From Bacteroidota bacterium (lineage in GTDB: Bacteria; Bacteroidota; Bacteroidia; Bacteroidales; M50B96): a stretch of DNA of 47,899 nucleotides. Position 1 is the stretch's first letter; each line of letters opens with the position of its first letter. A model generated the notes under the pieces. That model saw nothing but the letters and a program-made list of their open reading frames with translations, did no database searches and was not told where the DNA came from. Below are positions 3,101-47,855 of this stretch, one piece after another. Location: positions 1-47,899 of the forward strand of contig JANTGP010000004.1 in assembly GCA_024762835.1 (NCBI GenBank), read 5' to 3'. Both the position numbers and the translations under genes were made by a program.

Positions 3101-3839
3101 CTATCCTGTTTATCGTTACCTAACTTATGGAAATATTGACTTTGGAACTGTTAAAGGATTTAGTGTATCTTACGATATGAGACGTACAGGGAATGTTGCA
3201 ATTAGAGCAAGTTACACCTTGCAGTTTGCTAACGGAACAGGTTCAAGTGCCAACGAAGGGGTGAACCTGTTAAACTCAGGTCAGCCTAATCTAAGAACTA
3301 CAATTCCTTTATCGTTCGACCAACGCCATTCTATTATTACTAATATTGATTTTCGCTATTTTGACGGAAAGGCTTATAACGGACCAAAGTTATTTGGAAA
3401 AAAGATATTGGAGAACACCGGTGCTAACTTGATTATTCATGCAGGCTCAGGTTCACCTTACAGTAAAAGATCAATTGTTGGAGGTGTTCTTGAAGGTTCT
3501 ATTAACGGATCACGGAAACCATGGCGTACTACTCTCGATTTAACAATTGATAGAGATGTGATGATTACCTGGGGCGAAGGCGAAAGTAAGAAAAAAAGCA
3601 GGTTAAATATTAAATTAGAAATATTGAATCTCCTAAATACAAAAAACATACTTAATGTATATAGTCAAACCGGTAATCCCGACGATGACGGATATCTGTA
3701 TGCAGCAGCTAATCAAACTGCAATTGAATCTCAAATTGATGAAATGGCATACAGGAATTATTATATTATGTCTTTGCAACGTCCTTGGATGTATAGTCGA
3801 CCTAGAACAATCCGCTTGGGAGTAACATTAAGTTTTTAA
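171..3839 (+). CDS. TonB-dependent outer-membrane receptor with N-terminal carboxypeptidase-regulatory-like domain
   Basis: Signal peptide MLRRLLFFVFAILTASGLLAQ; GTVLDKETGEPIPFANVVV...GGGITDFDGKYIVKPIPAGKYSVKASYVGY; plug-like GSIRGARSSGNVTYVDGVKI...LPAKFGDATGGIINITTKG; C-terminal RTIRLGVTLSF ends in Phe. Confidence 0.93.
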   Translation: MLRRLLFFVFAILTASGLLAQSGSLQGTVLDKETGEPIPFANVVVESGGSLIGGGITDFDGKYIVKPIPAGKYSVKASYVGYTTMIQEGVVINAEKITFLKLKLSATSEAIPTVDIVSYKVPLIEKDQTQSGETMTSEQITKMPGRSAASVATTVAGVYSEGGEIGSIRGARSSGNVTYVDGVKIIGSSALPQSAIAEVSVLTGGLPAKFGDATGGIINITTKGPSNFYFGGIEAVTSKMLDPYDYNLIGMSVSGPLLTKVNPDYPDKKDAIMGFFLSGEFRYTKDSNPSIIPLYKAKDDVRASIIEDPLRAVNDGFGTNANADFLHAEDFETYNVKEGDDDYRLNIAGKLEYKPSKNSSIVLGGSALHQKSNNWSFSSSMFNSDNFSESYYTNWRSYLRYTQKFSDNPDDKNQVIKNAYYSIQFDYETTYGKSWDKDHKDNLFEYGYVGKFTTHKISSYTPFLETDSVTGLQAHLLNGFFDTLVEYEYSDVNYEVANYTRRYYDLFEGNNFYFMNNTLIQQGGGMLNGESPESIYGLWASPGQLTAGYSNFKNNQFRVSAAGSADIKNHAVSIGFEFEQRSSSSYSVSPRGLWTLGRGLMNKHIEQIDISNPILHYLLDENGEIVYDDFNNPVFNDTISYNRLYSASDQALFDIKFREHLGLPVDGLEWVDIDTYDPSEFNISYFSADELLNSGNSYVGFLGYDVHGNILKEKPSLQDFFSAVDENGRNSRLLAPYEPTYAAAYIQDKFAFKDLIFNVGLRVDRFDANQMVLKDPYTLYDAYKAGDDDGGKILNTTHPDNIGDDFVVYVDNADNPSQILGYRDQSTWYNAQGTEIDDPSTISTATGIQPYLVNPGIDMASPDYEVSQSFEDYKPQITVMPRISFSFPISDVALFFAHYDVLSTRPGGINISPVDYLFMNVRATNNNVLTNPNLKPEKTIDYELGFKQKIGNTSAITMSSFYREMRDMRQAINVIGSYPVYRYLTYGNIDFGTVKGFSVSYDMRRTGNVAIRASYTLQFANGTGSSANEGVNLLNSGQPNLRTTIPLSFDQRHSIITNIDFRYFDGKAYNGPKLFGKKILENTGANLIIHAGSGSPYSKRSIVGGVLEGSINGSRKPWRTTLDLTIDRDVMITWGEGESKKKSRLNIKLEILNLLNTKNILNVYSQTGNPDDDGYLYAAANQTAIESQIDEMAYRNYYIMSLQRPWMYSRPRTIRLGVTLSF

Positions 3840-6800: not shown

Positions 6801-8018
6801 TTTGAAGGTATACTTAATGGAACCTGGGCTCCTTATAAAATGGTAGCCGAAGGAGATAATGGATTGGCTTATACAAGTGGGCATGCCTTAATTACTTTCT
6901 CTAAATATCGTTTGGCAAGCGTGGATTTGGTTATTACAGCAGATAGGTCGAAATGGACACGTTCATGTGTGCTCGAAATGAGTGAGAATGATAGTTTGGA
7001 GAATGGTGATGCCGTTCCTGCTTTATTTGGCGAAGGTGATGCATATAAGTTTGATTTAAGAGATTCTTATTCAATAGATAAAGATGGAAATTATGCCTCA
7101 ACGGAAACTGGCAGTGATAACCCAAATGACCCGAATTATATTTCAGGTAAAGGTATGGGTTGGTTCCCGGGTTATGCTATTGATATAGAAACAGGGAAAA
7201 GACTTAATATAGTTTATGGCGAAGCATCAGCATTTCCGGGTGAGAATGGAAGAGATATGAAATGGAATCCTTCACCAAACGTATATTCAAACTTTGGTAT
7301 TCCTCTCTTTGGCGGGAAACATTATATTTATATTGTTGGTGATAACTTTATGCTTAAAGCAAATCATGTTGACACTTCTGTTTATATGCCAAGCTATGAT
7401 GCTTGTAAATATATGCGTACTTTGCTAACTAGCACCAGTATTCTTACGAGAAAGAAAGCCTATCAAAATTTTATGTGGACATCAATCCCAATATTAAATT
7501 TCAGCTATGAAGCTAAGGACTTTGAGAAGGATGTGTTATCTTTAAGCGATTTGACAATTAGTATTAGAATGGCGAATCCTCACAGAGCTGGATTTGGCAT
7601 ATATTCAGTAGAAAATCCTGTAAATGACGACTTCCCTAGATTTGAATTCGATACCAGAGATATTATGACAGTTAAGAATGACGAGGAAACTGGTAAAGAT
7701 GCTTTAGCTCTTATTAATATTGTTCCTAATCCTTATTATGGGTATTCTGAATATGAAAAGACACAGCTTGAAAATCTTGTTAAGATTACTAATCTTCCAA
7801 AGAAATGTACAATATCTATCTATAATGTTAGTGGTACCTTAGTAAGAAGATTTAAAAAGGATAGTGAACTAAGCTATCAGGAATGGGATTTGAAGAATCA
7901 ATATGGGATTTCTATTGCAAGCGGTGTTTATATTATACATGTGGATGCAGGTGTTTTAGGCGAACGAATCCTTAAATGGTTTGGAGCATTACGACCAATT
8001 GACCTTAATGCATTTTAG
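3867..8018 (+). CDS. Large secreted protein with T9SS-like C-terminal region
   Basis: 1383-aa ORF with signal peptide; SIWIGGTDVNGQLKLAALRFRQVGTDYWPGPL motif seen in Bacteroidota secreted proteins; C-terminal VPNPYYGYSEYE...ISIYNVSGTLVRRF...GISIASGVYIIHVDAG resembles a sorting domain. Confidence 0.85.
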   Translation: MRKIGYTFAIILWLTSGHILHAEKYIGSTNNNSGFKSGQGISAGCVPATGSTELDLNNVRALIQTGGDMWWDLQGTAQYEIPKGSGKTALFAGSIWIGGTDVNGQLKLAALRFRQVGTDYWPGPLITSGPDRGTTTSEVCLQYDRHYTIFRNQVAKFRAWYNADAETRAEDYPGYSIPSVILDWPAHGDVASGYDYYLAPFYDVDGDGYYDPYAGDYPFYDLDGELPCGTSREERIPRLFGDQTLWWVYNDRGNVHTETKGDAIGMEIRAQAFAFSTNDELNDMTFYNYALINRSTYTLIETYFGVWTDADMGYAFDDYVGCDVNRGLGYLYNGTAVDGTGQIQAYGGPTPPPPAVGVDFFEGPYQDPDGMDNPSSWNPVTGELNCDGNILNGNINGLNFGDGIVDNERWGMRRFLYFNNVSGVLGDPGEAIDYYNYLRGIWKDGTKMVYGGTGHYLDGDATDTETDFMFPGDTDPCGWGQGGQVMSFNWSEEQADNPPNDRRFVHSAGPFTLEPGAVNDITTGVVWARATGGGPYESVEEVRLADDKAQLLFDNCFKVVNGPDAPDAKFVELDKEVVFHIYNTPESNNYLEQYEEKDFSIIDFDTDGDGTVDILDKFYRFEGYQVFQFKDASVSVGDIGNINLVREVFQCDVKNDVDQLVNFTWSDNLGANIPEEMVDGANDGIKHTFTIKEDAFATNDKALVNHKRYYFAILAYGYNEYLKYDQNTSTKGQKKPYLAGRKGATGPIKVYEVIPHISSSSDGGTILNSEYGDGLEITQVEGFGSGPNIINMTKESIDQIMSGEPWSVDRRTYEKGYAPIKIKVIDPLNVPEGDFAICFDPDSADYNTGQIWNYEVKNDKWYIYQIGGNDIIDTIYSDKGIKVRNEQIISDLGLSVIVEFQQFQDEKLETTGEVDPTFGILSYSSVFSNVSNAWLSFLPDGDDFNAMNWIRSGTQNDVNNSEYNDLTVSSGAYDEDEAFEGILNGTWAPYKMVAEGDNGLAYTSGHALITFSKYRLASVDLVITADRSKWTRSCVLEMSENDSLENGDAVPALFGEGDAYKFDLRDSYSIDKDGNYASTETGSDNPNDPNYISGKGMGWFPGYAIDIETGKRLNIVYGEASAFPGENGRDMKWNPSPNVYSNFGIPLFGGKHYIYIVGDNFMLKANHVDTSVYMPSYDACKYMRTLLTSTSILTRKKAYQNFMWTSIPILNFSYEAKDFEKDVLSLSDLTISIRMANPHRAGFGIYSVENPVNDDFPRFEFDTRDIMTVKNDEETGKDALALINIVPNPYYGYSEYEKTQLENLVKITNLPKKCTISIYNVSGTLVRRFKKDSELSYQEWDLKNQYGISIASGVYIIHVDAGVLGERILKWFGALRPIDLNAF

Positions 8019-8058
8019 AAAAAGTAAATATTTGACAGATTATTATAATTGATATATT

Positions 8059-9126
8059 ATGAATAAATTATTAAAAAATACTCTAAGTATATTGTTAGTT
8101 TTGTTAGTAACATTACCGGTAAACATTTATGCCGGCAATAAGCAACGTGCAGGACAAGCAGGTGCAACTGAATTGCTGATTAACCCTTGGGCAAGAAGTT
8201 CAGGTTGGGGCGGTGCAAATACAGCAGGCACACATGGTTTAGAAGCTGTATTTACTAATGTAGCAGGTTTGGCTTTTACTCATAGTACCGACCTAATGTT
8301 TGTACATACTAATTGGCTGGGTGGATCAGATATTGGAATCAATGCATTTGGTTTTTCACAAAAAGTTGGAGAATCAGGTGTGCTTGCTCTTTCAGTGATG
8401 ACTATGGATTTTGGCGAGATACCTATAACTACTGTTGATTTACCTGAAGGTGGTATTGGAACCTTCCACCCTCAGTATACTAATATTTCGATTGCTTATG
8501 CAAAAGAATTCTCAAACTCAATTTTTGGAGGTGTTACAGTTAAAATAATTAATGAATCTATTTCTGACCTTACGGCAAGTGGTATTTGCTTTGATGCGGG
8601 TATTCAGTATGTTACAGGAGATGAGGAACAGCTTAAGTTTGGTATATCTATGAAAAATGTTGGACCTACCTTACTTTTTAAAGGTGATGGTCTTTCATTT
8701 AGAGGCATTGTTCCCGAAACAGAGGTCGACTTAACTGTTGAACAGAGATCACAAGATTTTGAACTACCTTCTTTAATTACAATTGGTGCCAGTTATGATT
8801 TTAATTTCTCTCAAGAAACAAGGTTGACTGCTGCAGGAAATTTTACATCTAATTCGTTTACTAAAGATCAATTCCATTTTGGACTTGAGTTTGCTTATCG
8901 AAATATCCTGTTCTTAAGAGGTGGATATGTACACGAAGAGGGTGATAAGATATTTGGTAATGATTATGACACAAGAGAGACAGCTTTCACAGGTCCTTCA
9001 TTTGGTTTTTCTTTACAAATACCAATTAATAAGGAAAATGGATCGACTATGTCATTAGATTATTCATATCGAGATACCGACCCTTTTAATGGAGTTCACA
9101 CCATTGGAGCAAAAATTAGTTTGTAA
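8059..9126 (+). CDS. PorV/PorQ-family (UPF0164-like) outer-membrane beta-barrel protein
   Basis: Signal peptide; AGATELLINPWARSSGWGGANTAGTHGLEAVFTNVAGLAF typical of PorV-like N-termini; beta-barrel-like C-terminus. Confidence 0.82.
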   Translation: MNKLLKNTLSILLVLLVTLPVNIYAGNKQRAGQAGATELLINPWARSSGWGGANTAGTHGLEAVFTNVAGLAFTHSTDLMFVHTNWLGGSDIGINAFGFSQKVGESGVLALSVMTMDFGEIPITTVDLPEGGIGTFHPQYTNISIAYAKEFSNSIFGGVTVKIINESISDLTASGICFDAGIQYVTGDEEQLKFGISMKNVGPTLLFKGDGLSFRGIVPETEVDLTVEQRSQDFELPSLITIGASYDFNFSQETRLTAAGNFTSNSFTKDQFHFGLEFAYRNILFLRGGYVHEEGDKIFGNDYDTRETAFTGPSFGFSLQIPINKENGSTMSLDYSYRDTDPFNGVHTIGAKISL

Positions 9127-9156
9127 TAAAATTTAATTTCATATATTAGAAATATA

Positions 9157-9185
9157 AAGAGTCCCGAATATTCGGGATTCTTTGT
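9157..9185 (+). terminator. Hairpin with T-run downstream of the PorV-like gene
   Basis: AAAGAGTCCCGAATATTCGGGATTCTTTG: self-complementary CCCGAATATTCGGG core followed by a short T-tract. Confidence 0.7.
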
Positions 9186-9211
9186 TGTTTATACACTTAA
9201 TAAAAAGAAAA

Positions 9212-9685
9212 ATGAGTAATATTTCATATATTACAGCCGAAGGCATGAAAAAACTGAAGGAAGAATTGGATTATCTTAAAAGAGTTCAACGTCCTTCTAT
9301 CTCAAAACAAATTGCAGAGGCAAGGGATAAAGGTGATTTGTCAGAAAATGCTGAATATGATGCAGCTAAGGAAGCACAAGGTCTTCTTGAAATGAGAATA
9401 TCAAAGATGGAAAATACCCTTGCTTTTTCCAGGCTGATTGATGAATCGAAAATTGATACGGAAACTGTACAGATATTAAATAAGGTTAAGTTAAAAAACC
9501 TGAATAATAATATGACAATGGAGTATATGATTGTTTCTGATAGCGAAGCCGATCTTAAATTAAAAAAACTGTCGGTGAATACTCCAATTGCAAAAGCTCT
9601 TTTAGGAAAAAGAGTTGGAGAAGTTGTTGAAGTAATAGTTCCCTCGGGCAAGCAGGTTTTTGAGATTATAGATATATCAATATAG
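9212..9685 (+). CDS. greA: Transcription elongation factor GreA
   Basis: ITAEGMKKLKEELDYLKRVQRPSISKQIAEARDKGDLSENAEYDAAKEAQ is the canonical GreA N-terminus; start set at MSNISY, internal to the track ORF 9182..9685. Confidence 0.95.
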   Translation: MSNISYITAEGMKKLKEELDYLKRVQRPSISKQIAEARDKGDLSENAEYDAAKEAQGLLEMRISKMENTLAFSRLIDESKIDTETVQILNKVKLKNLNNNMTMEYMIVSDSEADLKLKKLSVNTPIAKALLGKRVGEVVEVIVPSGKQVFEIIDISI

Positions 9686-9709
9686 AGTTTAATGTTAAAA
9701 TAAAGTAAT

Positions 9710-10105
9710 ATGGCAAGTATTTTTTCAAAGATTATCAGTGGAGAAATTTTTTCGTATAAGATAGCTGAAGATGATAATTTCTATGCCTTTCTTGATATTT
9801 TTCCAATTACAAAAGGACATACATTAGTTGTACCTAAAAGGGAGGTTGACTATATTTTTGACTTGGATGATGTGCTAATAGGTGAAATGAATATATTTGC
9901 AAAAAAGATTGCTAAAGCAATTGAAAAGGTTATTCCATGTAAACGCATCGGAGTAGCCGTTCTTGGGCTTGAAGTTCCTCATGCCCATATTCACTTAATA
10001 CCTATAACTACTGAGAAGGATATAGACTTTTCTAGGCCTAAGTTAAAATTAAGCGAGGAAGAGTTTATGACAATATCTCGGAAAATACGTGAGAATCTTA
10101 AGTAA
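9710..10105 (+). CDS. HIT family (histidine triad) protein
   Basis: IFSKIISGEIFSYKIAEDDNFYAFLDIFPITKGHTLVVPKR and histidine triad PHAHIHLIPI. Confidence 0.93.
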   Translation: MASIFSKIISGEIFSYKIAEDDNFYAFLDIFPITKGHTLVVPKREVDYIFDLDDVLIGEMNIFAKKIAKAIEKVIPCKRIGVAVLGLEVPHAHIHLIPITTEKDIDFSRPKLKLSEEEFMTISRKIRENLK

Positions 10106-10652
10106 TTCTATCCGGATTTTTCTTAATAAAATCACCCCAGTTTTTGTAGCTCTTTTTGTTAGAGCCAATATCTTTCTGAAAATAATGACAGACTGCAGCA
10201 GCTAGGCCATCAGTTGCATCCAAATCTTTGGGTAGTTCATCTATTTTTAAATATCTTAATAAGAAATCGGCCACTTGTTCCTTTGAGGCATTTCCGTTTC
10301 CTGTTATCGATTGCTTTATTTTTCTGGGTGCATATTCAAATATAGGCATCGATCGTGTAACTGCTGCTGATATTGCTGCACCTTGTGCTCTGCCAAGTTT
10401 TAACATCGACTGAACATTCTTACCGTAAAAGGGAGCTTCAATTGCTAATTCATCAGGAAGGTATTGTTCGATAAGTCCAATAGTTTTTTCAAATATTATC
10501 CTTAATTTATGATAGTGGTCATTATATTTCTTTAAATTTACAACACCTATTGCAATAATTTCGGGTTTAGGCTTTGTGGCTAAAATAATTCCATAGCCCA
10601 TAATGGAGGTTCCCGGGTCTATTCCTAAAATAATTTTTGGTGTTTTTTTCAA
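10098..10652 (-). CDS. ruvC: Crossover junction endodeoxyribonuclease RuvC
   Basis: ILGIDPGTSIMGYGII; LAIEAPFYGKNVQSMLKLGRAQGAAISAA; Y.PRKIKQSITGNGNASKEQV; DATDGLAAAVCH. Confidence 0.95.
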   Translation of the reverse strand: MKKTPKIILGIDPGTSIMGYGIILATKPKPEIIAIGVVNLKKYNDHYHKLRIIFEKTIGLIEQYLPDELAIEAPFYGKNVQSMLKLGRAQGAAISAAVTRSMPIFEYAPRKIKQSITGNGNASKEQVADFLLRYLKIDELPKDLDATDGLAAAVCHYFQKDIGSNKKSYKNWGDFIKKNPDRIT

Positions 10653-10712
10653 TTCAATATTCTTTTATTCAAAACTACAAAAAATACATAGTCTTGCAAA
10701 ACTGCCATTATT

Positions 10713-12551
10713 CTATGGATTTATTTCTTCATCAACAGAATCGCCTCTTATTGCCCGATATCTTTTTCTTGCTTCTACTATGTATATGGACCCCTCATAA
10801 TCGGTCATGAGTTTTTTATATAATTTCTCTGCTTCGTCAGGGTCATTCTTATTGTAATCATAAATGCTTGCAAGTTTAAATAGAGCATTGTCACCTAAAA
10901 CATCTGTTCCATAGTCGTTTATAACAATATTTAAATATTTAATTGCTTCATCATAGTTTTGATGTGAAAGGTAAATCTCTGCTTTTTTAAATAATACTTC
11001 ATCTGTTAGCGAGTGGTTTGGGAACATTGTCAATATTGAATCTAAAGTTAAAAAAGCCATTGAATCTTGTTTTCTGTATTCATACAATTCTGCCGAGGCA
11101 TAAAGCTTCATTGCAGTTTCAGAAGTGTCAAGACCTGTATTTTCAGTAATTAACATCGACAGGGCAAAAGCATCGTTTGCAATAAGTTTTGATGTGCTTG
11201 CTTTTAATACATCAAGTTGGGCCTGTGCCCATAAGAAGTCGCCGGAATAATAGGCTAATTTTGCTTTTCGTAGTTTTGCCTCATGCCCAATTATGCTTTC
11301 TTCGTTATCATTTTCTATTTGTGCATAAAGCAAAGCTGCTTCCCATATATTACCGTCAAACAAATCAATATCTGCAAGCTCAAGTTTACATAAATTAATA
11401 AAATCTTTTTTTAAAGCTTTTAGATTCATAAGCCTTTGTAGGTATTCTTTAGCCTTGTTTGTATTATCAAGATAAAAAGCAAGAATATGTGAATAGTCTT
11501 TTACAATGCCGGCTGTTTTAACATTTACTCCAAACTCATCAATTGTTTCGTCGTATAATTTTGCAATCTCCGACATGTGAGCTGCATCTGTTTTGTTTTG
11601 TATTATAAGTTTATTGTAAGATACTTTTAAATAAAGTTTTTTAGCATTAAAGAAATTATTATTCGACGAACCTTTTTTAATAATATATTTAAAAATATCA
11701 CCGGCAACATCTAAATCATTATTTGAAAATGCCAGCCTTCCTAGATTCATTAATCTGTTACCCTCCTCGTTATTTCTCTTATCTAATGCTTTAGCCTGAA
11801 AGAAAGCTTTTCTGAAATCTTTTTTCTGAACATATAGCCAGATTAATAACTCGTTATAAACAGAAAATTGTGGATTTTGCTGTATTTTACGTATTACACC
11901 CTCCTTTATTGATAGATAGATTTCATCATCAACGTCAATGTACATTGCAGCCTGTAATCGATTCTCAATATTTTTTAATTGAGATTCATTTTCCGATAAT
12001 AAATCAAGGTATTCGTTTAACATTTCAGAATACTCTCTTTCGACTAAATAAACATTAGCTAATTCATTGCGGAATAAAGAGTTGTTATTTAATAATTTCC
12101 TTCCTTTTAGAAGAGTTTGTTTTGCTAGTCCGTATTTTCGTTTTGCTCTAAATGAATTTGATAAACGAATAACCTGGTTTTTGTCTGCCGGAAGATGTTT
12201 AATCGCTTTTTGATATTGCTTATTGGCTTTTTCTGTATTTCCTTGCTGTTGATAATTATAACCAAGTTCAACTAAGAGAGATAAGTCCTTAGGTCTTTTT
12301 CTCATCTCTTTTTTTATTAATTTTTCCGCATTATCCAATTCTTTAAGCTGAATAAGACAGTTTAAATAAAAAGTAAAATAATTTCGTGATGAGCTTGAGT
12401 TCTCATAAAGTGATTTGTAAATTACAACTGCTTTATCATACTCTTTATTCTTATAATATTGATAGGCAAGTTTACTATCATTAAATTTAGGCTGAGCAAA
12501 TATTGATGTTGTTATAATTGCAAAAACTGTAATAAGAAATATTTTATTCAT
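10713..12551 (-). CDS. Tetratricopeptide-repeat protein, exported
   Basis: Signal peptide MNKIFLITVFAIITTSIFAQ; multiple TPR-like helical repeats (e.g. YQYYKNKEYDKAVVIYKSLY, YNYQQQGNTEKANKQYQKAI, ALFKLASIYDYNKNDPDEAEKLYKKL). Confidence 0.85.
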   Translation of the reverse strand: MNKIFLITVFAIITTSIFAQPKFNDSKLAYQYYKNKEYDKAVVIYKSLYENSSSSRNYFTFYLNCLIQLKELDNAEKLIKKEMRKRPKDLSLLVELGYNYQQQGNTEKANKQYQKAIKHLPADKNQVIRLSNSFRAKRKYGLAKQTLLKGRKLLNNNSLFRNELANVYLVEREYSEMLNEYLDLLSENESQLKNIENRLQAAMYIDVDDEIYLSIKEGVIRKIQQNPQFSVYNELLIWLYVQKKDFRKAFFQAKALDKRNNEEGNRLMNLGRLAFSNNDLDVAGDIFKYIIKKGSSNNNFFNAKKLYLKVSYNKLIIQNKTDAAHMSEIAKLYDETIDEFGVNVKTAGIVKDYSHILAFYLDNTNKAKEYLQRLMNLKALKKDFINLCKLELADIDLFDGNIWEAALLYAQIENDNEESIIGHEAKLRKAKLAYYSGDFLWAQAQLDVLKASTSKLIANDAFALSMLITENTGLDTSETAMKLYASAELYEYRKQDSMAFLTLDSILTMFPNHSLTDEVLFKKAEIYLSHQNYDEAIKYLNIVINDYGTDVLGDNALFKLASIYDYNKNDPDEAEKLYKKLMTDYEGSIYIVEARKRYRAIRGDSVDEEINP

Positions 12552-12609
12552 TTGTAATTCGTTTATCTGATTTTCAAATAGCTTGTCGTTAGTATATTTT
12601 AAATAAAAA

Positions 12610-12617
12610 CAAACTTA
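12610..12617 (-). promoter_or_regulatory. Candidate Bacteroidota -7 element for the TPR gene
   Basis: Minus strand reads TAAGTTTG, matching TAnnTTTG, about 60 nt upstream of the TPR gene start; the -33 element is weak. Confidence 0.45.
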
Positions 12618-12672
12618 TCTTAGAACGTTGCTCTGCTTAACAGAGTATAAAGAATCAGAAATTTTCATTAAT

Positions 12673-12716
12673 AATTCAAAAAAAGCCACTCTAAATAAGG
12701 TGGCTTTTTTTGAATT
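12673..12716 (-). terminator. Intrinsic terminator of the EF-G-like gene (bidirectional symmetry)
   Basis: AATTCAAAAAAAGCCAC...GTGGCTTTTTTTGAATT perfect inverted repeat with A/T tracts, just 3' of the minus-strand gene ending at 12737. Confidence 0.85.
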
Positions 12717-39449: not shown

Positions 39450-41060
39450 ATGGCATCACTGAATTTACGGCAGGGAGTATTGGGCACACGGTTGGCCGCC
39501 CATTTGTTGCGACGTGGAACCTATAATTATTCCCCCGAAAGAATTTATGAATTTGCAACAAAAACAGCAGACGAAGCTGTAGATGAGTTATTCACTATCC
39601 CACCATTAATTCATCCTGAGGGTCCTATTAATTATGTTGATGGTGTGAGTCCCTGGCTTACGGTTGACCCTTATTCAAACAATCCGGGAAATAGTACGTA
39701 TCAACGTCGTTCCGTGCAATTGTGGATATACAATGAATTAATGCACGATCCATCAATAAGGCAAAAATTAACAATGTTCTTTCATGCTGTTTTTGTTACA
39801 GCAAGCGATACCGATTGGCGTTATTTTGATCATTGGCGATTATTGTTAATGTTCTCAACCGGAAATATTAAAACACTTGCTTATAAGATAACTCTTGATA
39901 GTAAGATGTTACGCTATCTTAATAATAATGCTAATTATAGAAATAGCCCTAATGAAAATTATGCTAGGGAGTTCATGGAGCTATTTACAATATTGAAAGG
40001 TGAGCAAATTCAGACTGGTAATTATACTAATTACTCTGAGTTAGATGTAGCACAGGCTGCAAGAGTATTATCGGGTTTTAGAGATTCAAACTTTGAAAAT
40101 AAAGATCCTGAAACCGGGTTAGCTACAGGTTATGCTAGCCATTGGTATCACAATGTTGGTAATAAAACTTTCGATTCTACTTTTCAGCATCAAACAATTA
40201 TTGCAGCTGTCGATGCTGATGATATGTATCGAGAGTTACAAGATTATATCGATATGATATTTAATCAGATTGAAACAGCTAAAGCATTTTGTAGACGTTT
40301 ATACAGATTCTTTGTTAGCGATAGAATAGACAGCGAAATAGAAAATGATATTATTACACCCTTAGCTAATCAATTGCAGGCAGATGAATATGAGATATCT
40401 GATGTATTAAAAACTCTACTTAAGAGTACTCATTTTTACGATGAAGATGATACTAATAGCGAAGATGAAATAATTGGGGGTAAAATTAAATCGCCTTTGG
40501 AGTTGTTTTTTGGTAGTGTCAATTTGTTTAATGCAAATCAAATGGGAGTGCTAAATGACAATCCGGATCTGTATTATAGTTTACCATATTATTTAATCTA
40601 TCGGTATCTTGAGCCAATGGGATTCCCTGACGAGGCTTTATCGGTTGAGGGTTATCCGGGCTTCTTTAAAGGACCGGATTATAGTAAGAACTGGATCAAT
40701 CAGTCTACTATTTCATACAGATATCGATTGGCTTATTCTTTAATTAATGGAAAAACAATTAAGTATAATTCGACCAAGCCATTTAAAATTGACATAGTTG
40801 AATTTGTTGAAGATAATTTTTCTAATATCGGTTATCCGGATTCTTTAGTCACGCAAATGCTAGAAGTTTCATTTGCCGTTATGCCCGATCAAGATAGGTT
40901 TGATTATTATAAAGGAAAGCTATTAGGATCATTAAGTGCTGAGAATTGGTATATGGAATGGTATAATTATACTCAAAATAATGATGATTCTGCAGTAAGA
41001 ATCGCTTTGAATAATTTATTTGATGCAATTTGCTCTTCACCGGAGTTCCAAACATTTTAA
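39450..41060 (+). CDS. DUF1800 family protein
   Basis: LGTRLAAHLLRRGTYNYSPERIYEFATKTADEAVDELF; LTMFFHAVFVTASD; NENYAREFMELFTIL; ARVLSGF; ETAKAFCRRLYRFFVSD. Confidence 0.9.
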   Translation: MASLNLRQGVLGTRLAAHLLRRGTYNYSPERIYEFATKTADEAVDELFTIPPLIHPEGPINYVDGVSPWLTVDPYSNNPGNSTYQRRSVQLWIYNELMHDPSIRQKLTMFFHAVFVTASDTDWRYFDHWRLLLMFSTGNIKTLAYKITLDSKMLRYLNNNANYRNSPNENYAREFMELFTILKGEQIQTGNYTNYSELDVAQAARVLSGFRDSNFENKDPETGLATGYASHWYHNVGNKTFDSTFQHQTIIAAVDADDMYRELQDYIDMIFNQIETAKAFCRRLYRFFVSDRIDSEIENDIITPLANQLQADEYEISDVLKTLLKSTHFYDEDDTNSEDEIIGGKIKSPLELFFGSVNLFNANQMGVLNDNPDLYYSLPYYLIYRYLEPMGFPDEALSVEGYPGFFKGPDYSKNWINQSTISYRYRLAYSLINGKTIKYNSTKPFKIDIVEFVEDNFSNIGYPDSLVTQMLEVSFAVMPDQDRFDYYKGKLLGSLSAENWYMEWYNYTQNNDDSAVRIALNNLFDAICSSPEFQTF

Positions 41061-41077
41061 ACTAGAAAATTAATATT

Positions 41078-43108
41078 ATGAATAGAAGAAACTTTATAAA
41101 AAGCACTCTTCCTTTAGGAATGTTACCTTTTGTTATAAATGGAATTTCTTTAAGATCGCTTGCGGCACCTTCGCCTCTAATTGTTGACCCTTGTGCCGTT
41201 ACAGATAGGTCAATGGTTATTATTTTTCTTAACGGAGGAAATGATATTGTTAATACAACAGTACCACTTAATCAATTGGCTTCTTATGCTTTACACAGAC
41301 CAAATATTCATCTTCCAGAGAGTTCTTTGATTGAATTAGACTCATCTCTCCCTCCTAATCAACAGCTTGGTTTGCATCCTCAGTTAACCGGCTTTAAATC
41401 TTTATACGATGATGGATTGATGTCTATTGTTCAGGGAGTATCTTATGAAGAGCCTAACCGTTCGCATTTTACATCATTGCAAAATTGGCTGACAGGTAGT
41501 GGAGGTCCCTTAGTAAATGAGGATACAGGATGGTTAGCAAGATTCCTCCAGCATAGATATCCGGCTTATAATGGTAACCCATTTATTGATGAACCCGACC
41601 CGATAGCTGTCCTTTTTGGAGATATGAATAATAGAGGATTCTATACAACTGAGCCTTATAAATGGGAATTAAATTTATCGGGACAAGACCCTGCAGGATT
41701 TTATTCTCTAGTGTCATCAATGAGTGGTGATCCGATACTTAACATTCCAATAACCGAGAATGGCGAGATGCTTACTCATATTGCCGAAATAGAGAATAGT
41801 GTAAATATTTATGCCCAAAGAATTTCCGAAACTTATTATGTTGGCAGTAACAGTACGGTTCTTTATCCTGATAATACTCTTGGAAACCAGCTGAAATCAA
41901 TTGCAAGAATGTTAAATGGAGGAAGCAGAACAAAGATATTTATGGCAACAATGGGAGGTTTTGATAATCACTCTTATGAGGTAAATTCCGGTGATTCAAC
42001 TATTGGTAATCATGCAAATAGACTCGAAGAACTGGGTGATGCGGTAAAGGCCTTTCAAGATGATCTGGAAAATTTAAACCTTGATTCAAATGTTACTACT
42101 GTTATTTTTTCTGAGTTTGGAAGAAAGATAATTCAGAATGCCAACTATGGCACCGACCATGGTACTCTCAGTTCAGTGTTTGTTATTGGAAAAGGAGTTG
42201 AAGGAGGAGTAGTTGGTACAAATCTCGACTTGGATGACCAGGACACACAAGGTGCTGCAAATCCTTTGGCCTTACAACACGATTATCGTCAAATCTTTGC
42301 TACGTTAATGCAAGACTGGTTTGGTGCTGATGACAGCTCTCTTGAAGACACATTTATTTCACCAAGCTTTTATTCTCAAAAATTACCATTGATAAATACT
42401 ACACATATAGTACCCGGCTCTTGTTATTATGTGCCTGTTATTCCTGTTGTATCAGCAAATATAAATGTAAAAGTTATGCTTGAAGGTTTTTATGTCGAGA
42501 GTCAAGCAAATATGCATACTAATTTGTTAACTTCGCTACTTATACCACTCTCAAACCCATACACGATTGCTCCTTTTAATTATCCCGGTACGGAAACAAT
42601 TACAACATATCCGGCAGGAACAGTTGACTGGGTATTGGTTGAGTTAAGGCCGGTATCTAATCTTAGCGAGATTGTTGCCCGCAAAGCAATGCTTATTCGT
42701 TACGATGGTATTATCATGGATGTTGACGGAAATCCGGGGATTAATTTCCAGAGCGTTCCTGATACAGAGTACCATATTGCAGTGTATCATAGAAACCATG
42801 TTGCAGTTATAAGTAGTGAGCCCATATTCTTAAATGCCTCAGGGCTTATCTATGATTTTACCCAAAGCGATGATAGAGCTTATGGAACAGAACAGTTAAA
42901 ACAGCTTGGTTCTGACTTTGTTATGATAGCAGCTGATGCTGATGGTAATCAGGTAATTAACAGTCTTGATTTTAACTTATATCAAGAAAATAAAGGATTA
43001 AACTCGGTATATAATAAAGCAGATTTTAATGCTGATGGAAATGTTGATGCTCAAGATTATAATCTTTGGTTAGAAAACAGAAGTAAATTAGGACAGCTTA
43101 AATATTAA
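41078..43108 (+). CDS. DUF1501 family protein with Tat-like signal and C-terminal dockerin-like Ca-binding repeats
   Basis: N-term MNRRNFIKSTLPLGMLPF; MVIIFLNGGNDIVNTTVP; MATMGGFDNHS; VIFSEFGRKIIQNANYGTDHGTLSSVFVIG; C-term DADGNQVINSLDFNLYQ...ADFNADGNVDAQDYNLWLEN. Confidence 0.9.
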   Translation: MNRRNFIKSTLPLGMLPFVINGISLRSLAAPSPLIVDPCAVTDRSMVIIFLNGGNDIVNTTVPLNQLASYALHRPNIHLPESSLIELDSSLPPNQQLGLHPQLTGFKSLYDDGLMSIVQGVSYEEPNRSHFTSLQNWLTGSGGPLVNEDTGWLARFLQHRYPAYNGNPFIDEPDPIAVLFGDMNNRGFYTTEPYKWELNLSGQDPAGFYSLVSSMSGDPILNIPITENGEMLTHIAEIENSVNIYAQRISETYYVGSNSTVLYPDNTLGNQLKSIARMLNGGSRTKIFMATMGGFDNHSYEVNSGDSTIGNHANRLEELGDAVKAFQDDLENLNLDSNVTTVIFSEFGRKIIQNANYGTDHGTLSSVFVIGKGVEGGVVGTNLDLDDQDTQGAANPLALQHDYRQIFATLMQDWFGADDSSLEDTFISPSFYSQKLPLINTTHIVPGSCYYVPVIPVVSANINVKVMLEGFYVESQANMHTNLLTSLLIPLSNPYTIAPFNYPGTETITTYPAGTVDWVLVELRPVSNLSEIVARKAMLIRYDGIIMDVDGNPGINFQSVPDTEYHIAVYHRNHVAVISSEPIFLNASGLIYDFTQSDDRAYGTEQLKQLGSDFVMIAADADGNQVINSLDFNLYQENKGLNSVYNKADFNADGNVDAQDYNLWLENRSKLGQLKY

Positions 43109-43112
43109 AATT

Positions 43113-46100
43113 ATGAAACGAATAATACTTGCCATATCCTTTTTCTTATTTACAGGCTCTGTATATTTATTGCATAGCCAGACATTAAATATTGCTTTAT
43201 CATTTGAAAAGGATTGTAATAGCGAAATCTTTTATGCAACTATTCAGTTGTATACCGACTCGGGTAGTACATTCCAAATCGGAACATCTTCAATTGCTCT
43301 GTCGTTTAACAAGGATGCGATTTCTTTCAATAATTATCAGGCATTGCATTTTAATGGTATAGATCAATGTGCTGGGATTGGGATTGAAGCCTGGGATATT
43401 CATAAAGTTGATACAGTTTCTTTTAATAATCAGTTTCATCTGGTCTTGTCATTGAGTGATACAAATTTTAGCTGCCCTACAATTTCTTATCTTGACACTA
43501 TTAATATTGGAATTATTAGTTTCAATATTTTACAACAAGGTGCTAACCCATCGATATATTTTGACACAAGTATGACTTGGTTTAATAGTGACATCCCTAA
43601 CGATGGCTCCGGACTTCTATCTATTGGGAGTTATTCACCTATTGATTCTATAGGGATTTTATTATGTGATTGTTCTGGCGAAGGAACTGCCTGCGATGAT
43701 AATAATGTATTAACTGTTAATGATGTTTATGATAGTTATTGTAATTGCTTTGGTGAATATCTTGATAGTGATAATGATGGAATTCTTGATGGTATTGACC
43801 CCTGTTCGGATGTTTTATATGAAGCCGAAAATGCTGATACTGCTCATGTTGAAATATGGAATTCGTATTATCAGCATACCGGAACCGGTTTTATAAATTT
43901 CGTACACAGTACAGGAGATTCTGTTCAGTTTAATATTTTCACTTCAGATACAGCTGATTATTCTTTGGGGTTTCGCTATTCCTTAGGCTATGGAAATAGA
44001 CCCTTGAGTTTGACAATTGATGGGATTGTTGTTGTTGCCAGTCTTGATTTTCCCTCAACAGGTAGCTGGTATAATTGGGATACTATTACATATTCTTATT
44101 TTTTCATACCGGGAAATCATTCTGTCTTAGTTACAACAATTGGTTCTGAAGGTCCTATGCTCGATCATCTTAAGTTATCGCATTGTACTTCTTGTTCATT
44201 ATCGGGAGACCCATGTGATGACGGCGATCCATGTACTATTAATGATGTATTTGATGCTAATTGTAATTGTGCAGGTATTTACCTTGATTCTGATAATGAT
44301 GGTGTGTGTGATAATTTTGATATTTGTGACGGGGGTGATGATTCTGTGGATTCAGACTCTGATGGAATACCGGATTATTGTGATGAATGTAACGATTTCT
44401 TAGTTGGTACTCCTTGCGACGATGGTAACCCTTGTACAATAAATGATACTTTAAACGCGAGTTGTAATTGCGAAGGTATTTTTCTTGAACCGGATACTGA
44501 CGGTGATGGTGTTTGCGACAGCCTTGATATTTGTAATGGGGGAGATGATAATGTTGATGAGGACATGGATGGTGTTCCTGATTATTGCGATACATGCAAC
44601 GATTTGCTTTTTGGTCAGCCATGTAGCGATGGCGATACCTGTACTATATTAGATGTTTACGATGCTGATTGTAATTGTGCAGGAATTGAGATTGATACAG
44701 ATGGCGATGGAGTTTGTGACATTATGGATATGTGTGAAGGTTCAAATGATAGTTTAGACGTGGATAATGATGGTATTCCTGATGACTGTGATGATTGTAA
44801 TAATGCCTTAACGGGCTCTGCATGTGATGACGACAATGAATGTACTATTAATGACTCTATAGACATAAACTGTGATTGTGTTGGAGAATTTATTGATTCT
44901 GATTCTGACGGGGTTTGTGATGCCTTTGACCAATGTTCCGGATCTCCCGATTTTGAAGATAATGATGGTGATGCTATCCCGAATAATTGCGATGATTGTT
45001 ATGATTTGGTTTATCAGGCTGAAGATGCTTACTACTCGTCAAGTGCAATCTTAGGAACCGGTGCAAATTCAACAGGCTCAGGATATGTACGATTTACAAA
45101 TAATCTGGATACTATAATCTTCAATCTTGTATCCGGCGATACCGGCTTGGTTACTATTACTATAAGATATGCCCAGGCTTATGAGGGAAAGACTGGAATG
45201 ATTAAGTTTGATGGACAAATTCTTTTCGAAGATTTTGCTTATCCAAAAGTTGATGATGAATGGGATGTATGGGATACTGTTCAGTTTAGCACTTATTTTA
45301 CTTCAGGAAATCACATATTGGAACTGATTAATAATGATCAGGACCCTTATGGTCCTCGCTTTGATTATGTCTCATTATGCTTGCCTGGCTTTAATCCTGA
45401 ACCACTTATTGCCAAAGGGAATAACCAATTTGAAGATGGTTTTGACAATTGGACTCTTTTGTATAATAATTGGGTGATTAGTGGATTTACTGAAATTTAT
45501 ATTGATACGACTAATGCTTTTTGCGGATGGAATGATGCATATGTAGCCAGCGTTGGTGCATATCAACAACTTATTACATCTTTAGATAATTTACTTATTG
45601 GCGACATAATGTGCTTGCATTTTTATACAGCTTCCGGAATGGCAAATGCATGGGTCGGACCTTCTTCATCAAATGTGTTTGATGGTGTTTATCATTTTGT
45701 AAATAGCACATGGGCACAGGGTGAATATGTTCACGATTCAATAGAGTTTGTTGTAACTGAACCTACGATGCAGGTGCGTTTTGACATCTTTCCAAATACA
45801 GAAATGTACTTTGATAATTTTTCATTTGATGGTTATGGCTGCGAACCTGAACCCGTTTTAGATATTTCTGAAATATCATGTTTTGGAGAAACTGATGCAT
45901 CTATCACAGCCAATTGTATTGGGGGTGCAAATCCGATAAGTTATTTGTGGAGTACCGGCGATACGCTTGAAACAATTAACAACTTAGCAGATGATATATA
46001 TTCTGTTACGGTTACTGATAAAAAGGGTATATCTAATTCTGTAGGATACCAGATTATTGAGCCTGATGCACTAAGTATTTTTGGTAATATTACTCATGAG

Positions 46101-47855
46101 TCGGATATTGGAAGTGGCGATGGAAGTATTGTCGTTTTACCCTCAGGAGGTAATGCACCATATTATTATTTATGGTCAACACTTGACACAATAAATGAAC
46201 TTAATGGTTTGACCGCAGGATATTATGAGCTTATCTTAACGGATATTCATGGCTGTGAACTTGATTCAACTTTCGAGATTAGTACTGTATCAACATTTTT
46301 TGATCCTAACTGGAATTTTCAGGTAACTGGTATCTCACATATTGTTTTAATTCAAACAACCGGACAAATCATTATTGATGGTATTCCTTTAGAGAATGGT
46401 GATTATATAGGAGCATTTTACGATTCGGCTGGTGTTTATGCTTGTGCCGGCTATATGATGTGGTTAAATACAGTTGGATATATTACTGTTTTTGGCGATG
46501 ATTCATATACGCCTGAGATTGAAGGATTCACTCAAGGCGACAAATTAAACTGGAAAGCCTGGCGTCATGCTGATAGCTCAATAGTAAATTTAACTGCATA
46601 CTATATTACCGACATGCCAAATATTCCTGACTCTGGTTATTTTGCAGCAAATGGTATATCCGGAATTTATTCTTTTGCAGAGGAATCGGCTCTTAGTACA
46701 CAGAGTATAATATTAAATACAGGTTGGGATATCTATTCTTCAAATCTTGATATTACTTTTCCTGATATTGCTCAGGTATTTGATGATGTATCAGGTAATT
46801 TGGTTATAGTAAAAAATACTAATGGAGATGTTTACTGGCCTGCCTTTGGGTTTAACAATATTGGAGATATGATAATTGGCGAAGGCTACTATGTTAACAT
46901 GTTACAAACTGATACTTTAATACTTTCGGGTTTAACAATTATTCCGGAGCAAGTTCAAATTAATATTACTGCAGGCTGGAGTCTAATTGCATATTTAAGA
47001 AATTCACCTGCATCTGTTGAAAGTATGTTTAGTTCTATTGTTTCCCAAATAGTTTTGGTAAAAGATGGACAGGGTAATGTTTATTGGCCTATTTTTATGG
47101 TAAATACAATTGGCGATATGATTCCGGGCAAGGGTTATTTAATAAATATGATGAGCTCGCAGCCTTTTACCTATCCGGCAAATTCATTTACAGGTAATAA
47201 AACAAGTGGCGAAAAGATTGCCCCAATATTCTACAATACTGTAAAATCAGGTAGTAGAAGTATGACTTTAGGTATTCCCTTAAGTGCATGGCCTTATAAA
47301 ATTGAAAAGGGAGATGAGGTTGGTATTTATAGCGAATCAGGTTTGTTAATTGCTTCGGGAGTCTTTACAGGAAACAATATGGCAATTACAATTTGGGGCG
47401 ATGATAAATATAACGATATTACTGATGGTTTGCATACCGGCGAAAAGTTTTCTTTAAGCTTGTGGCATTCAGCCAGTAATTTTGAAGAAGATATTTTTGT
47501 TGGTGATTTTCGTTCCGGCGATAATGTCTATTCAGATAATAAGATTACTATTATTGATAGATTAATAACTTCCGACCTTGCGGGGAATCATGCTATCTTA
47601 TTCCAGAACTCGCCAAATCCTTTTACCACTAAAACCACTTTTAGTTTTTACTTACCTTATGATACAAATATTGAATTATCAATAGTTAATTTGTTAGGTG
47701 AGAAGATTGATGTCGTTTTTTCAGGAAAGAAAAGTCAGGGTATACATAGTATAAGGTATAATGTTAATAATCTAGCTGCGGGTAGTTATTATTATCAGCT
47801 TGAAACATCATCATTTACAAATACAAAGAAAATGCTGATTATAAAGTCGAGGTAG
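43113..47855 (+). CDS. Giant modular T9SS-secreted surface protein (CBM6/35-like, TSP3/MopE-like, SprB-like repeats, type A sorting domain)
   Basis: Signal peptide; Cys/Asp-rich DSDNDGVCD-type repeats; two YEAEN/YQAED modules; SCFGETDASITANCIGGANPISYLWSTGDT SprB-like repeats; C-terminal NSPNPFTTKTTFSFYLP...IVNLLGEKI...AAGSYYYQLETSSFTNTKKMLIIKS. Confidence 0.92.
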   Translation: MKRIILAISFFLFTGSVYLLHSQTLNIALSFEKDCNSEIFYATIQLYTDSGSTFQIGTSSIALSFNKDAISFNNYQALHFNGIDQCAGIGIEAWDIHKVDTVSFNNQFHLVLSLSDTNFSCPTISYLDTINIGIISFNILQQGANPSIYFDTSMTWFNSDIPNDGSGLLSIGSYSPIDSIGILLCDCSGEGTACDDNNVLTVNDVYDSYCNCFGEYLDSDNDGILDGIDPCSDVLYEAENADTAHVEIWNSYYQHTGTGFINFVHSTGDSVQFNIFTSDTADYSLGFRYSLGYGNRPLSLTIDGIVVVASLDFPSTGSWYNWDTITYSYFFIPGNHSVLVTTIGSEGPMLDHLKLSHCTSCSLSGDPCDDGDPCTINDVFDANCNCAGIYLDSDNDGVCDNFDICDGGDDSVDSDSDGIPDYCDECNDFLVGTPCDDGNPCTINDTLNASCNCEGIFLEPDTDGDGVCDSLDICNGGDDNVDEDMDGVPDYCDTCNDLLFGQPCSDGDTCTILDVYDADCNCAGIEIDTDGDGVCDIMDMCEGSNDSLDVDNDGIPDDCDDCNNALTGSACDDDNECTINDSIDINCDCVGEFIDSDSDGVCDAFDQCSGSPDFEDNDGDAIPNNCDDCYDLVYQAEDAYYSSSAILGTGANSTGSGYVRFTNNLDTIIFNLVSGDTGLVTITIRYAQAYEGKTGMIKFDGQILFEDFAYPKVDDEWDVWDTVQFSTYFTSGNHILELINNDQDPYGPRFDYVSLCLPGFNPEPLIAKGNNQFEDGFDNWTLLYNNWVISGFTEIYIDTTNAFCGWNDAYVASVGAYQQLITSLDNLLIGDIMCLHFYTASGMANAWVGPSSSNVFDGVYHFVNSTWAQGEYVHDSIEFVVTEPTMQVRFDIFPNTEMYFDNFSFDGYGCEPEPVLDISEISCFGETDASITANCIGGANPISYLWSTGDTLETINNLADDIYSVTVTDKKGISNSVGYQIIEPDALSIFGNITHESDIGSGDGSIVVLPSGGNAPYYYLWSTLDTINELNGLTAGYYELILTDIHGCELDSTFEISTVSTFFDPNWNFQVTGISHIVLIQTTGQIIIDGIPLENGDYIGAFYDSAGVYACAGYMMWLNTVGYITVFGDDSYTPEIEGFTQGDKLNWKAWRHADSSIVNLTAYYITDMPNIPDSGYFAANGISGIYSFAEESALSTQSIILNTGWDIYSSNLDITFPDIAQVFDDVSGNLVIVKNTNGDVYWPAFGFNNIGDMIIGEGYYVNMLQTDTLILSGLTIIPEQVQINITAGWSLIAYLRNSPASVESMFSSIVSQIVLVKDGQGNVYWPIFMVNTIGDMIPGKGYLINMMSSQPFTYPANSFTGNKTSGEKIAPIFYNTVKSGSRSMTLGIPLSAWPYKIEKGDEVGIYSESGLLIASGVFTGNNMAITIWGDDKYNDITDGLHTGEKFSLSLWHSASNFEEDIFVGDFRSGDNVYSDNKITIIDRLITSDLAGNHAILFQNSPNPFTTKTTFSFYLPYDTNIELSIVNLLGEKIDVVFSGKKSQGIHSIRYNVNNLAAGSYYYQLETSSFTNTKKMLIIKSR
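43818..44186 (+). other. CBM6/CBM35-like module 1
   Basis: YEAENADTAHVE...GTGFINFVHSTGDSVQFNIF...YSLGFRYSLGYGNRPLSLTIDG...WDTITYSYFFIPGNHSVLVTT...LDHLKLSHC. Confidence 0.6.
44205..45011 (+). repeat. Four tandem Cys/Asp-rich TSP3/MopE-like repeats (66-69 aa each)
   Basis: Units start at 44205, 44406, 44613 and 44814 with G.PCDDGDPCTINDV.DANCNCAGI.LDSD.DGVCD..D.C.G..D..D.D.DGIPDYCD.C. Confidence 0.9.
45012..45380 (+). other. CBM6/CBM35-like module 2
   Basis: YQAEDAYYSSSAILGTGANSTGSGYVRFTNNLDTIIFNLVSGDTGLVTITIRYA...GNHILELINNDQDPYGPRFDYVSLC. Confidence 0.65.
45850..46290 (+). other. Two SprB-like repeats
   Basis: ISCFGETDASITANCIGGANPISYLWSTGDTLETINNLADDIYSVTVTDKKG and GDGSIVVLPSGGNAPYYYLWSTLDTINELNGLTAGYYELILTDIHGC. 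Confidence 0.7.

What the first reader, a model, noticed from the sequence alone, without database searches (positions are those of the whole stretch)
39450..47855. DUF1800 / DUF1501-dockerin / giant T9SS adhesin triad as a candidate uncharacterised surface system
Seen: three consecutive plus-strand genes with 17-bp and 4-bp gaps: DUF1800 without an obvious signal peptide, DUF1501 with a Tat-like RRNFIK signal and a C-terminal dockerin-like pair, and a 1580-aa Ca-binding/CBM/SprB-like protein with a type A sorting domain. Established: DUF1800 and DUF1501 are frequently adjacent, and their function is largely unknown. Inference: the pair may modify, process or anchor the giant Ca-rich surface protein, with DUF1501 (alkaline-phosphatase-like GTDHG/GGFDNH metal residues) as the enzymatic part.
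Basis: partly seen in the sequence, partly recalled or inferred. Interest (0 to 1): 0.6.

Follow-up and report, generated by a model that had tools for sequence, protein, structure and literature searches.

The report
Twin-arginine enzyme pair with swapped anchor
Two adjacent genes of unknown function make an enzyme pair that most related bacteria seem to export through the Tat channel and then push to the cell surface with a second machine (T9SS), and here the enzyme has lost its usual T9SS tag and carries a docking-like tail instead, next to a giant surface protein that is not a regular partner.

Summary
The three genes, their 17- and 4-bp gaps and their domains are real. The giant is not a regular partner: none of 72 relatives with readable downstream DNA has a >1000-aa gene closely behind DUF1501, and its N-terminal domain has no match in 297 Bacteroidota genomes. 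DUF1800-DUF1501 is the conserved unit (72/75). Of 80 A-type DUF1501 proteins (window included), 78 have a twin-arginine motif and 75 a T9SS type-A sorting domain (CTD); other T9SS cargo of this genome show the motif in 1 of 36. Reviews describe T9SS cargo as Sec-exported, so this family looks like Tat-then-T9SS cargo. A-type DUF1800 lacks a signal peptide in 82/84, which fits hitch-hiking. The window DUF1501 is an exception inside a CTD-bearing clade: its CTD is replaced by a ~215-aa C-terminal module, part dockerin-like, part unnamed, found in 42/297 genomes and terminal in 25/30 examined. DUF1501 has the alkaline-phosphatase/sulfatase fold; DUF1800 models as all-helical without PDB match, possibly related to PSD1. 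A second pair in this genome has a conserved third gene, a small T9SS-sorted F5/8-type-C protein. Export routes, binding and substrate are inferred, not shown.

The parts
39450..41060 (+). DUF1800 protein, 536 aa, no signal peptide; all-helical model; proposed partner subunit of DUF1501
   Evidence: Pfam PF08811 211 bits; A-type homologues lack a hydrophobic leader in 82/84; AF2 pLDDT 86.8, pTM 0.89, no PDB match
41078..41170 (+). Tat-like signal region MNRRNFIK... of DUF1501 (end approximate)
   Evidence: RRx[FLM] in 78/80 homologues with a hydrophobic stretch in 80/80; TatC in this genome at C145
41198..42430 (+). DUF1501 catalytic domain, alkaline-phosphatase/sulfatase fold; conserved D56, S129, H130, D296, H298, H312, D360, H361
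   Evidence: Pfam PF07394; invariant columns over 80 sequences; Foldseek to LtaS and sulfatases, prob 1.00
42461..43105 (+). C-terminal ~215-aa module in place of the usual T9SS type-A sorting domain: unnamed half (VDWVLVELR...HRNH) plus dockerin-like pair of Ca-binding loops
   Evidence: No TIGR04183 match in the window protein; homologous modules in 42/297 genomes, terminal in 25/30 examined; profile hits to PDB dockerins
43113..47855 (+). 1580-aa T9SS type-A sorted protein with CBM_6/CBM_35, SprB and Ca-binding repeats; co-directional neighbour, not a conserved partner
   Evidence: Pfam, TIGR04183 29.6 bits; not recurrent next to the pair

Best explanation
Genes 1 and 2 encode a two-subunit envelope enzyme. 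DUF1501 is a metal-dependent hydrolase or transferase of the alkaline-phosphatase superfamily, exported folded by Tat; DUF1800, without a signal of its own, is carried along as its partner (hitch-hiker). In most Bacteroidota relatives the DUF1501 subunit carries a T9SS type-A sorting domain that would take the complex across the outer membrane. In this window that domain has been lost and replaced by a C-terminal dockerin-like module, which probably holds or sorts the enzyme at the surface another way, most likely by docking to a surface protein. The giant downstream is a T9SS-sorted, probably glycan-binding surface protein that is co-expressed and may be used with the pair, but is not a fixed component. 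Substrate is probably a surface or environmental glycan carrying phosphate or sulfate. Shown: gene order, motifs, domains, fold class of DUF1501, distribution. Inferred: co-export, surface location, docking, substrate.
For: Pair conserved, DUF1800 directly upstream in 72/75. RRx[FLM] in 78/80 and hydrophobic stretch in 80/80; TIGR04183 in 75/80; control 1/36 other T9SS cargo of this genome (Fisher p 4e-26, sequences not independent). No hydrophobic leader in 82/84 A-type DUF1800. TatC present in this genome. AP fold by Foldseek, prob 1.00, with invariant D56, S129, H130, D296, H298, H312, D360, H361. Window protein nested in a 12-row clade (100/100) of otherwise CTD-bearing members. Module related to dockerins and a cohesin domain over Pfam cut-off exists elsewhere in this genome. 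Glycan theme: B-type third gene has F5/8 type C; sulfatases or an FGE-type gene lie next to two relatives; chitin-synthase operons contain the pair (PMC5122149).
Against: No experiment. Twin-arginine motifs are read by pattern, not by a trained predictor; the NCBIfam Tat signal model matched only 1 of 80 at E 0.01. DUF1800 could stay in the cytoplasm. A third of relatives have an RR motif near the DUF1800 N-terminus without a hydrophobic stretch (31/84), which is unexplained. No cohesin was found in the giant, so the docking partner is unknown. Fold search TM-scores are low (0.2-0.5) and the module region of the model is poor. Loss of the CTD could also mean a periplasmic enzyme.
Confidence: 0.5

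Rival explanations
1. The window pair is periplasmic. Without a sorting domain DUF1501 stays in the periplasm after Tat export; the C-terminal module is only a Ca-binding spacer, and the giant is an unrelated neighbour.
For: No CTD in the window protein. Other DUF1501 subfamilies and some A-type members also lack one. The giant is not recurrent.
Against: The module sits at the extreme C-terminus of many large secreted-type proteins, an odd place for a mere spacer; the nearest relatives are CTD-bearing.
Confidence: 0.27
2. One reading: the giant is the substrate or scaffold of the DUF pair, and the CTD that DUF1501 lost is supplied in trans by gene 3.
For: 4-bp gap, same strand. The second, B-type pair of this genome also lacks a CTD on DUF1501 and is followed by a T9SS-sorted protein with a galactose-binding-like domain, conserved in three genomes. 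CTD-less DUF1501 loci have a surface-type third gene in 5 of 13 against 4 of 67 others (p 0.005; 3 of 11 and p 0.054 after collapsing the B family; grouped after seeing the data).
Against: The giant itself does not recur; no binding module for the dockerin-like tail was found in it; CTD proteins are abundant in this genome, 150 scored at the table's cap.
Confidence: 0.15
3. Chance operon-like neighbourhood: gene 3 is an independently transcribed T9SS adhesin that merely landed behind the pair.
For: No recurrence; T9SS genes are dense in this genome; neighbours of the pair vary widely between relatives.
Against: 4-bp gap and no terminator-like site at the junction, though the scan has no power.
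Confidence: 0.08

Closest known systems
DUF1800-DUF1501 pairs linked to bacterial chitin synthase (PMC5122149)
   Same: Same two families, adjacent, DUF1501 with a twin-arginine motif; function unknown
   Different: No T9SS sorting domain or dockerin-like tail described there; here no chitin synthase was looked for beyond the window
PSCyt1-PSCyt2 (DUF1549)-PSD1 (DUF1553) + DUF1501 pairs, planctomycete type, also found in the sampled Bacteroidota
   Same: A DUF1501 protein beside a large partner whose PSD1 domain is possibly related to DUF1800 (hhalign prob 80.7, E 1.3e-5; weaker with other alignments)
   Different: Those partners carry a cytochrome c-like domain and LamG or CBM domains; DUF1800 has none
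Alkaline phosphatase / sulfatase superfamily (LtaS, sulfatases, PbgA/YejM)
   Same: Fold match prob 1.00 and conserved Asp/His motifs
   Different: About 10% identity, low TM-scores, nucleophile uncertain (S129 in A-type, not conserved in planctomycete type)
T9SS type-A cargo (TIGR04183)
   Same: Most A-type DUF1501 proteins and the giant carry the sorting domain
   Different: Reviews give Sec as the inner-membrane route of T9SS cargo (PMC5445135, PMC9251779); these have a twin-arginine start. The window DUF1501 lacks the sorting domain
X-module-dockerin dyads of cellulosomes (e.g. PDB 2b59, 4u3s)
   Same: Profile hits over the dockerin part and C-terminal position
   Different: First ~150 aa match no named family; cohesin partner not identified

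Membership tests
DUF1800 (PF08811) | Full-length match to the Pfam profile over cut-off | tested here: met
   211 bits, profile 1-418/419
DUF1501 (PF07394) | Match to the Pfam profile over cut-off | tested here: met
   67 bits, profile 242-342/390 as best stretch
Alkaline phosphatase superfamily | AP-type fold | tested here: met
   Foldseek PDB, LtaS and sulfatases, prob 1.00, E 2.7e-6, TM 0.2-0.5
Alkaline phosphatase superfamily | Two-metal site with identified nucleophile | tested here: inconclusive
   Asp/His motifs invariant; S129 as nucleophile is a guess from position at a helix start
Tat substrate | Twin-arginine motif with hydrophobic stretch and TatC in the genome | tested here: met
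   NCBIfam Tat model matched only 1 of 80
Tat substrate | Export depends on TatC | not testable with these tools
   needs a mutant
T9SS type-A cargo (for window DUF1501) | C-terminal type-A sorting domain | tested here: not met
   No TIGR04183 match in the window protein while 75/80 of the set match
T9SS type-A cargo (for the giant) | C-terminal type-A sorting domain | tested here: met
   TIGR04183 29.6 bits, cut-off 23
Type I dockerin (PF00404) | Score over Pfam cut-off | tested here: not met
   18.3 bits against 22.9; family-wide profile hits PDB dockerins, best E among named dockerins 0.0024
PSD1 (DUF1553) homologue (for DUF1800) | Significant profile match | tested here: inconclusive
   prob 80.7, 31.0 and 3.7 with three alignment pairs
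Conserved DUF1800/DUF1501/giant triad | Giant recurs behind the pair in other genomes | tested here: not met
   0 of 72; N-terminal domain without match in 297 genomes

The most novel reading that the evidence does not exclude
The ~215-aa C-terminal module is an unrecognised surface-sorting or anchoring domain of Bacteroidota that can stand in for the T9SS type-A sorting domain: in this window it occupies the place where 11 close relatives have that domain, it lies at the extreme C-terminus of most proteins that bear it, and no type-A domain follows it in the 30 examined.
Probability: 0.2. Interest if true: 0.75.

Novelty: new variant of a known kind. Interest (0 to 1): 0.52.

Why it matters
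T9SS cargo are described as Sec-exported. A whole family with a twin-arginine start and a T9SS sorting domain would mean that already folded, perhaps two-subunit, enzymes pass both membranes by a Tat-then-T9SS route, testable with tatC and T9SS mutants. It also gives a first mechanistic frame for two widespread families of unknown function, and a natural swap (sorting domain against dockerin-like module) that can be tested directly.

Tried and rejected
Giant as conserved partner: 0 of 72, no N-terminal homologue in 297 genomes. DUF1800 as a known fold: no PDB match. DUF1800 equals PSD1: only one of three profile comparisons is strong. RNA elements: no Rfam match in the window. Promoter and terminator scans are uninformative, near shuffle level. 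Literature: no described Tat-dependent T9SS cargo in the searches made, open-access library only. Control for the twin-arginine motif inside the fetched loci was too small (14 ORFs) and was replaced by 36 cargo of this genome. DUF1501-TatC co-occurrence is uninformative, TatC being nearly universal (296/297).
Full report
Observation. Three co-directional genes lie at 39450-41060, 41078-43108 and 43113-47855 with 17- and 4-bp gaps. Pfam gives DUF1800, DUF1501 and, for the third, CBM_6/CBM_35, SprB and a T9SS tail; Dockerin_1 on DUF1501 is below its cut-off. The window ends at a contig end just after the third gene.

The genome. Three point three Mb, 317 contigs, two DUF1800-DUF1501 pairs. DUF1501 is rare in the order (7 of 80 genomes) but common in the phylum (137 of 297). 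T9SS type-A tails are abundant: 150 scored, the scoring limit, of 268 candidates. So a T9SS gene near any gene is unremarkable. TatC is present (C145).

The conserved unit is the pair. A scan of genome contigs gave the 80 best loci out of more than 577 confirmed, so counts describe the closest relatives only. DUF1800 lies directly upstream in 72 of 75 with enough sequence. Behind DUF1501, 72 loci have at least 1.2 kb: the next ORF is same-strand in 51 and within 150 bp in 30, none over 1000 aa. These neighbours vary: TonB-dependent receptors, sulfatases, an FGE-type protein, CHU_C and Por_Secre_tail proteins, choice-of-anchor V. Nine loci (L007, L041, L043, L045, L046, L060, L082, L098, L099) share an outer-membrane barrel plus a ~400-aa lipoprotein beside the pair, in differing orientation. 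The giant's N-terminal domain matched none of 297 genomes.

Two signals on one protein. A set of 80 A-type DUF1501 (window, two same-order relatives, 77 complete contig hits) was scanned: TIGR04183 in 75, window not among them. The regular expression RRx[FLM] in the first 60 residues is met by 78, and a hydrophobic stretch by 80. NCBIfam's own Tat model matched one, so the Tat reading rests on motif conservation, not on that model. As control, the longest ORFs of 40 regions holding T9SS tails of this genome were read: 36 had an N-terminus, one met the pattern and does not look like a Tat signal. Fisher p is 4e-26, but the homologues are not independent. Reviews state that T9SS cargo use Sec (PMC5445135; PMC9251779); no Tat-dependent T9SS cargo turned up in the searches of open-access papers.

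DUF1800 without a signal. Of 84 complete A-type DUF1800 ORFs, 82 have no hydrophobic stretch before the core; the two exceptions are weak. Start codons were taken mechanically. In 31 the leader holds an RR-like motif without a hydrophobic stretch, unexplained. Since the partner is exported, hitch-hiking, as known for Tat complexes (Rodrigue et al. 1999, cited in PMC9251779), is the simplest reading; a cytoplasmic DUF1800 is not excluded.

The window exception. In a tree of the catalytic part the window protein lies in a 12-row clade (support 100/100) whose other members show a type-A tail by their C-termini. The two same-order relatives L007 and L008 fall elsewhere, so the window pair probably has a separate history. 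The window protein instead ends in a ~215-aa module. Similar modules close other secreted proteins of this genome; three on C155 hold only the first half. With a profile of seven, 42 of 297 genomes match at 1e-6. Of the 30 loci returned, one of them the window itself, 25 have the module within 25 aa of the stop and none has a type-A tail after it by pattern. No NCBIfam model matches 26 modules; Pfam gives weak Dockerin_1 in five. Against PDB sequences the profile hits mostly cellulosomal dockerins, over the last ~55 residues, best E 7e-4 for a serine protease chain and 2.4e-3 for a named dockerin.

A docking partner? A cohesin over cut-off is present at C15 (35.2 bits), weaker ones at C102; both neighbourhoods hold T9SS-sorted proteins. 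None was found in the giant.

Structures. DUF1501: AF2 mean pLDDT 61.5, catalytic part better, module poor; Foldseek gives LtaS and sulfatases, prob 1.00, TM 0.2-0.5. Invariant D56, S129, H130, D296, H298, H312, D360, H361 suit such a site; the nucleophile is not settled, since D56 and S129 are not kept in the planctomycete type. DUF1800: pLDDT 86.8, pTM 0.89, all-helical, best PDB match E 0.58, prob 0.06. In the planctomycete-type loci sampled, partners carry PSCyt2 and PSD1. DUF1800 against PSD1 profiles gave probabilities 3.7, 80.7 and 31.0 for three alignment pairs; the higher ones came after I widened the alignments, so this is a lead.

The second pair. At C19 DUF1800 with a Sec-type signal and a DUF1501 without CTD are followed by a 245-aa F5/8-type-C protein with a T9SS tail. 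The same three genes stand together in G124 and G241; in three further genomes the domain sits in ~800-aa frames, whose neighbours were not read. Thus a DUF1501 without its own sorting domain is followed by a T9SS-sorted, sugar-binding-type protein in both loci of this genome. Across loci: 5 of 13 against 4 of 67 (p 0.005), or 3 of 11 (p 0.054) when the B family counts once.

Conclusion. Likely a Tat-exported AP-superfamily enzyme with a hitch-hiking DUF1800, usually delivered by T9SS, here with an exchanged C-terminus. The giant is a plausible local associate, not a component. Location, complex, docking and substrate all need experiments.

Noticed in passing
L112-independent: 42 genomes; window 42461-43105: Unnamed ~215-aa C-terminal module (KVxLEGxY, VDWVLVELR, HRNH, dockerin-like pair, often ending SxVP) on many large secreted-type proteins of Bacteroidota; no NCBIfam model.
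   Followed up: partly
L043 (Glaciecola amylolytica, CP034120.1), 7346-12694: A gammaproteobacterial chromosome carries the pair with a T9SS-type tail, the barrel and the lipoprotein; probably horizontal transfer. Whether it has a T9SS was not checked.
   Followed up: no
L007, L041, L043, L045, L046, L060, L082, L098, L099: Outer-membrane barrel (OMP_b-brl_2 in the one scanned) plus ~400-aa lipoprotein, the latter without Pfam domain, recur beside the pair.
   Followed up: partly
A-type DUF1800 leaders, e.g. L055, L066, L101: MDRRDFL-like twin-arginine motif without a hydrophobic stretch at the N-terminus of DUF1800 (31 of 84 by a loose pattern).
   Followed up: partly
L005:7506-11555 (G000 C19): B-type DUF1800-DUF1501-F5/8C-T9SS three-gene set, conserved in G124 (L021) and G241 (L022).
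   Followed up: yes
L170, L171 (G000 C15 and C102): Cohesin-type domains near T9SS-sorted proteins that also hold dockerin-like stretches.
   Followed up: partly
window:8059-9126: PorP/SprF-like protein behind a TonB plug protein (171-3839) and a 1383-aa protein without Pfam match.
   Followed up: no
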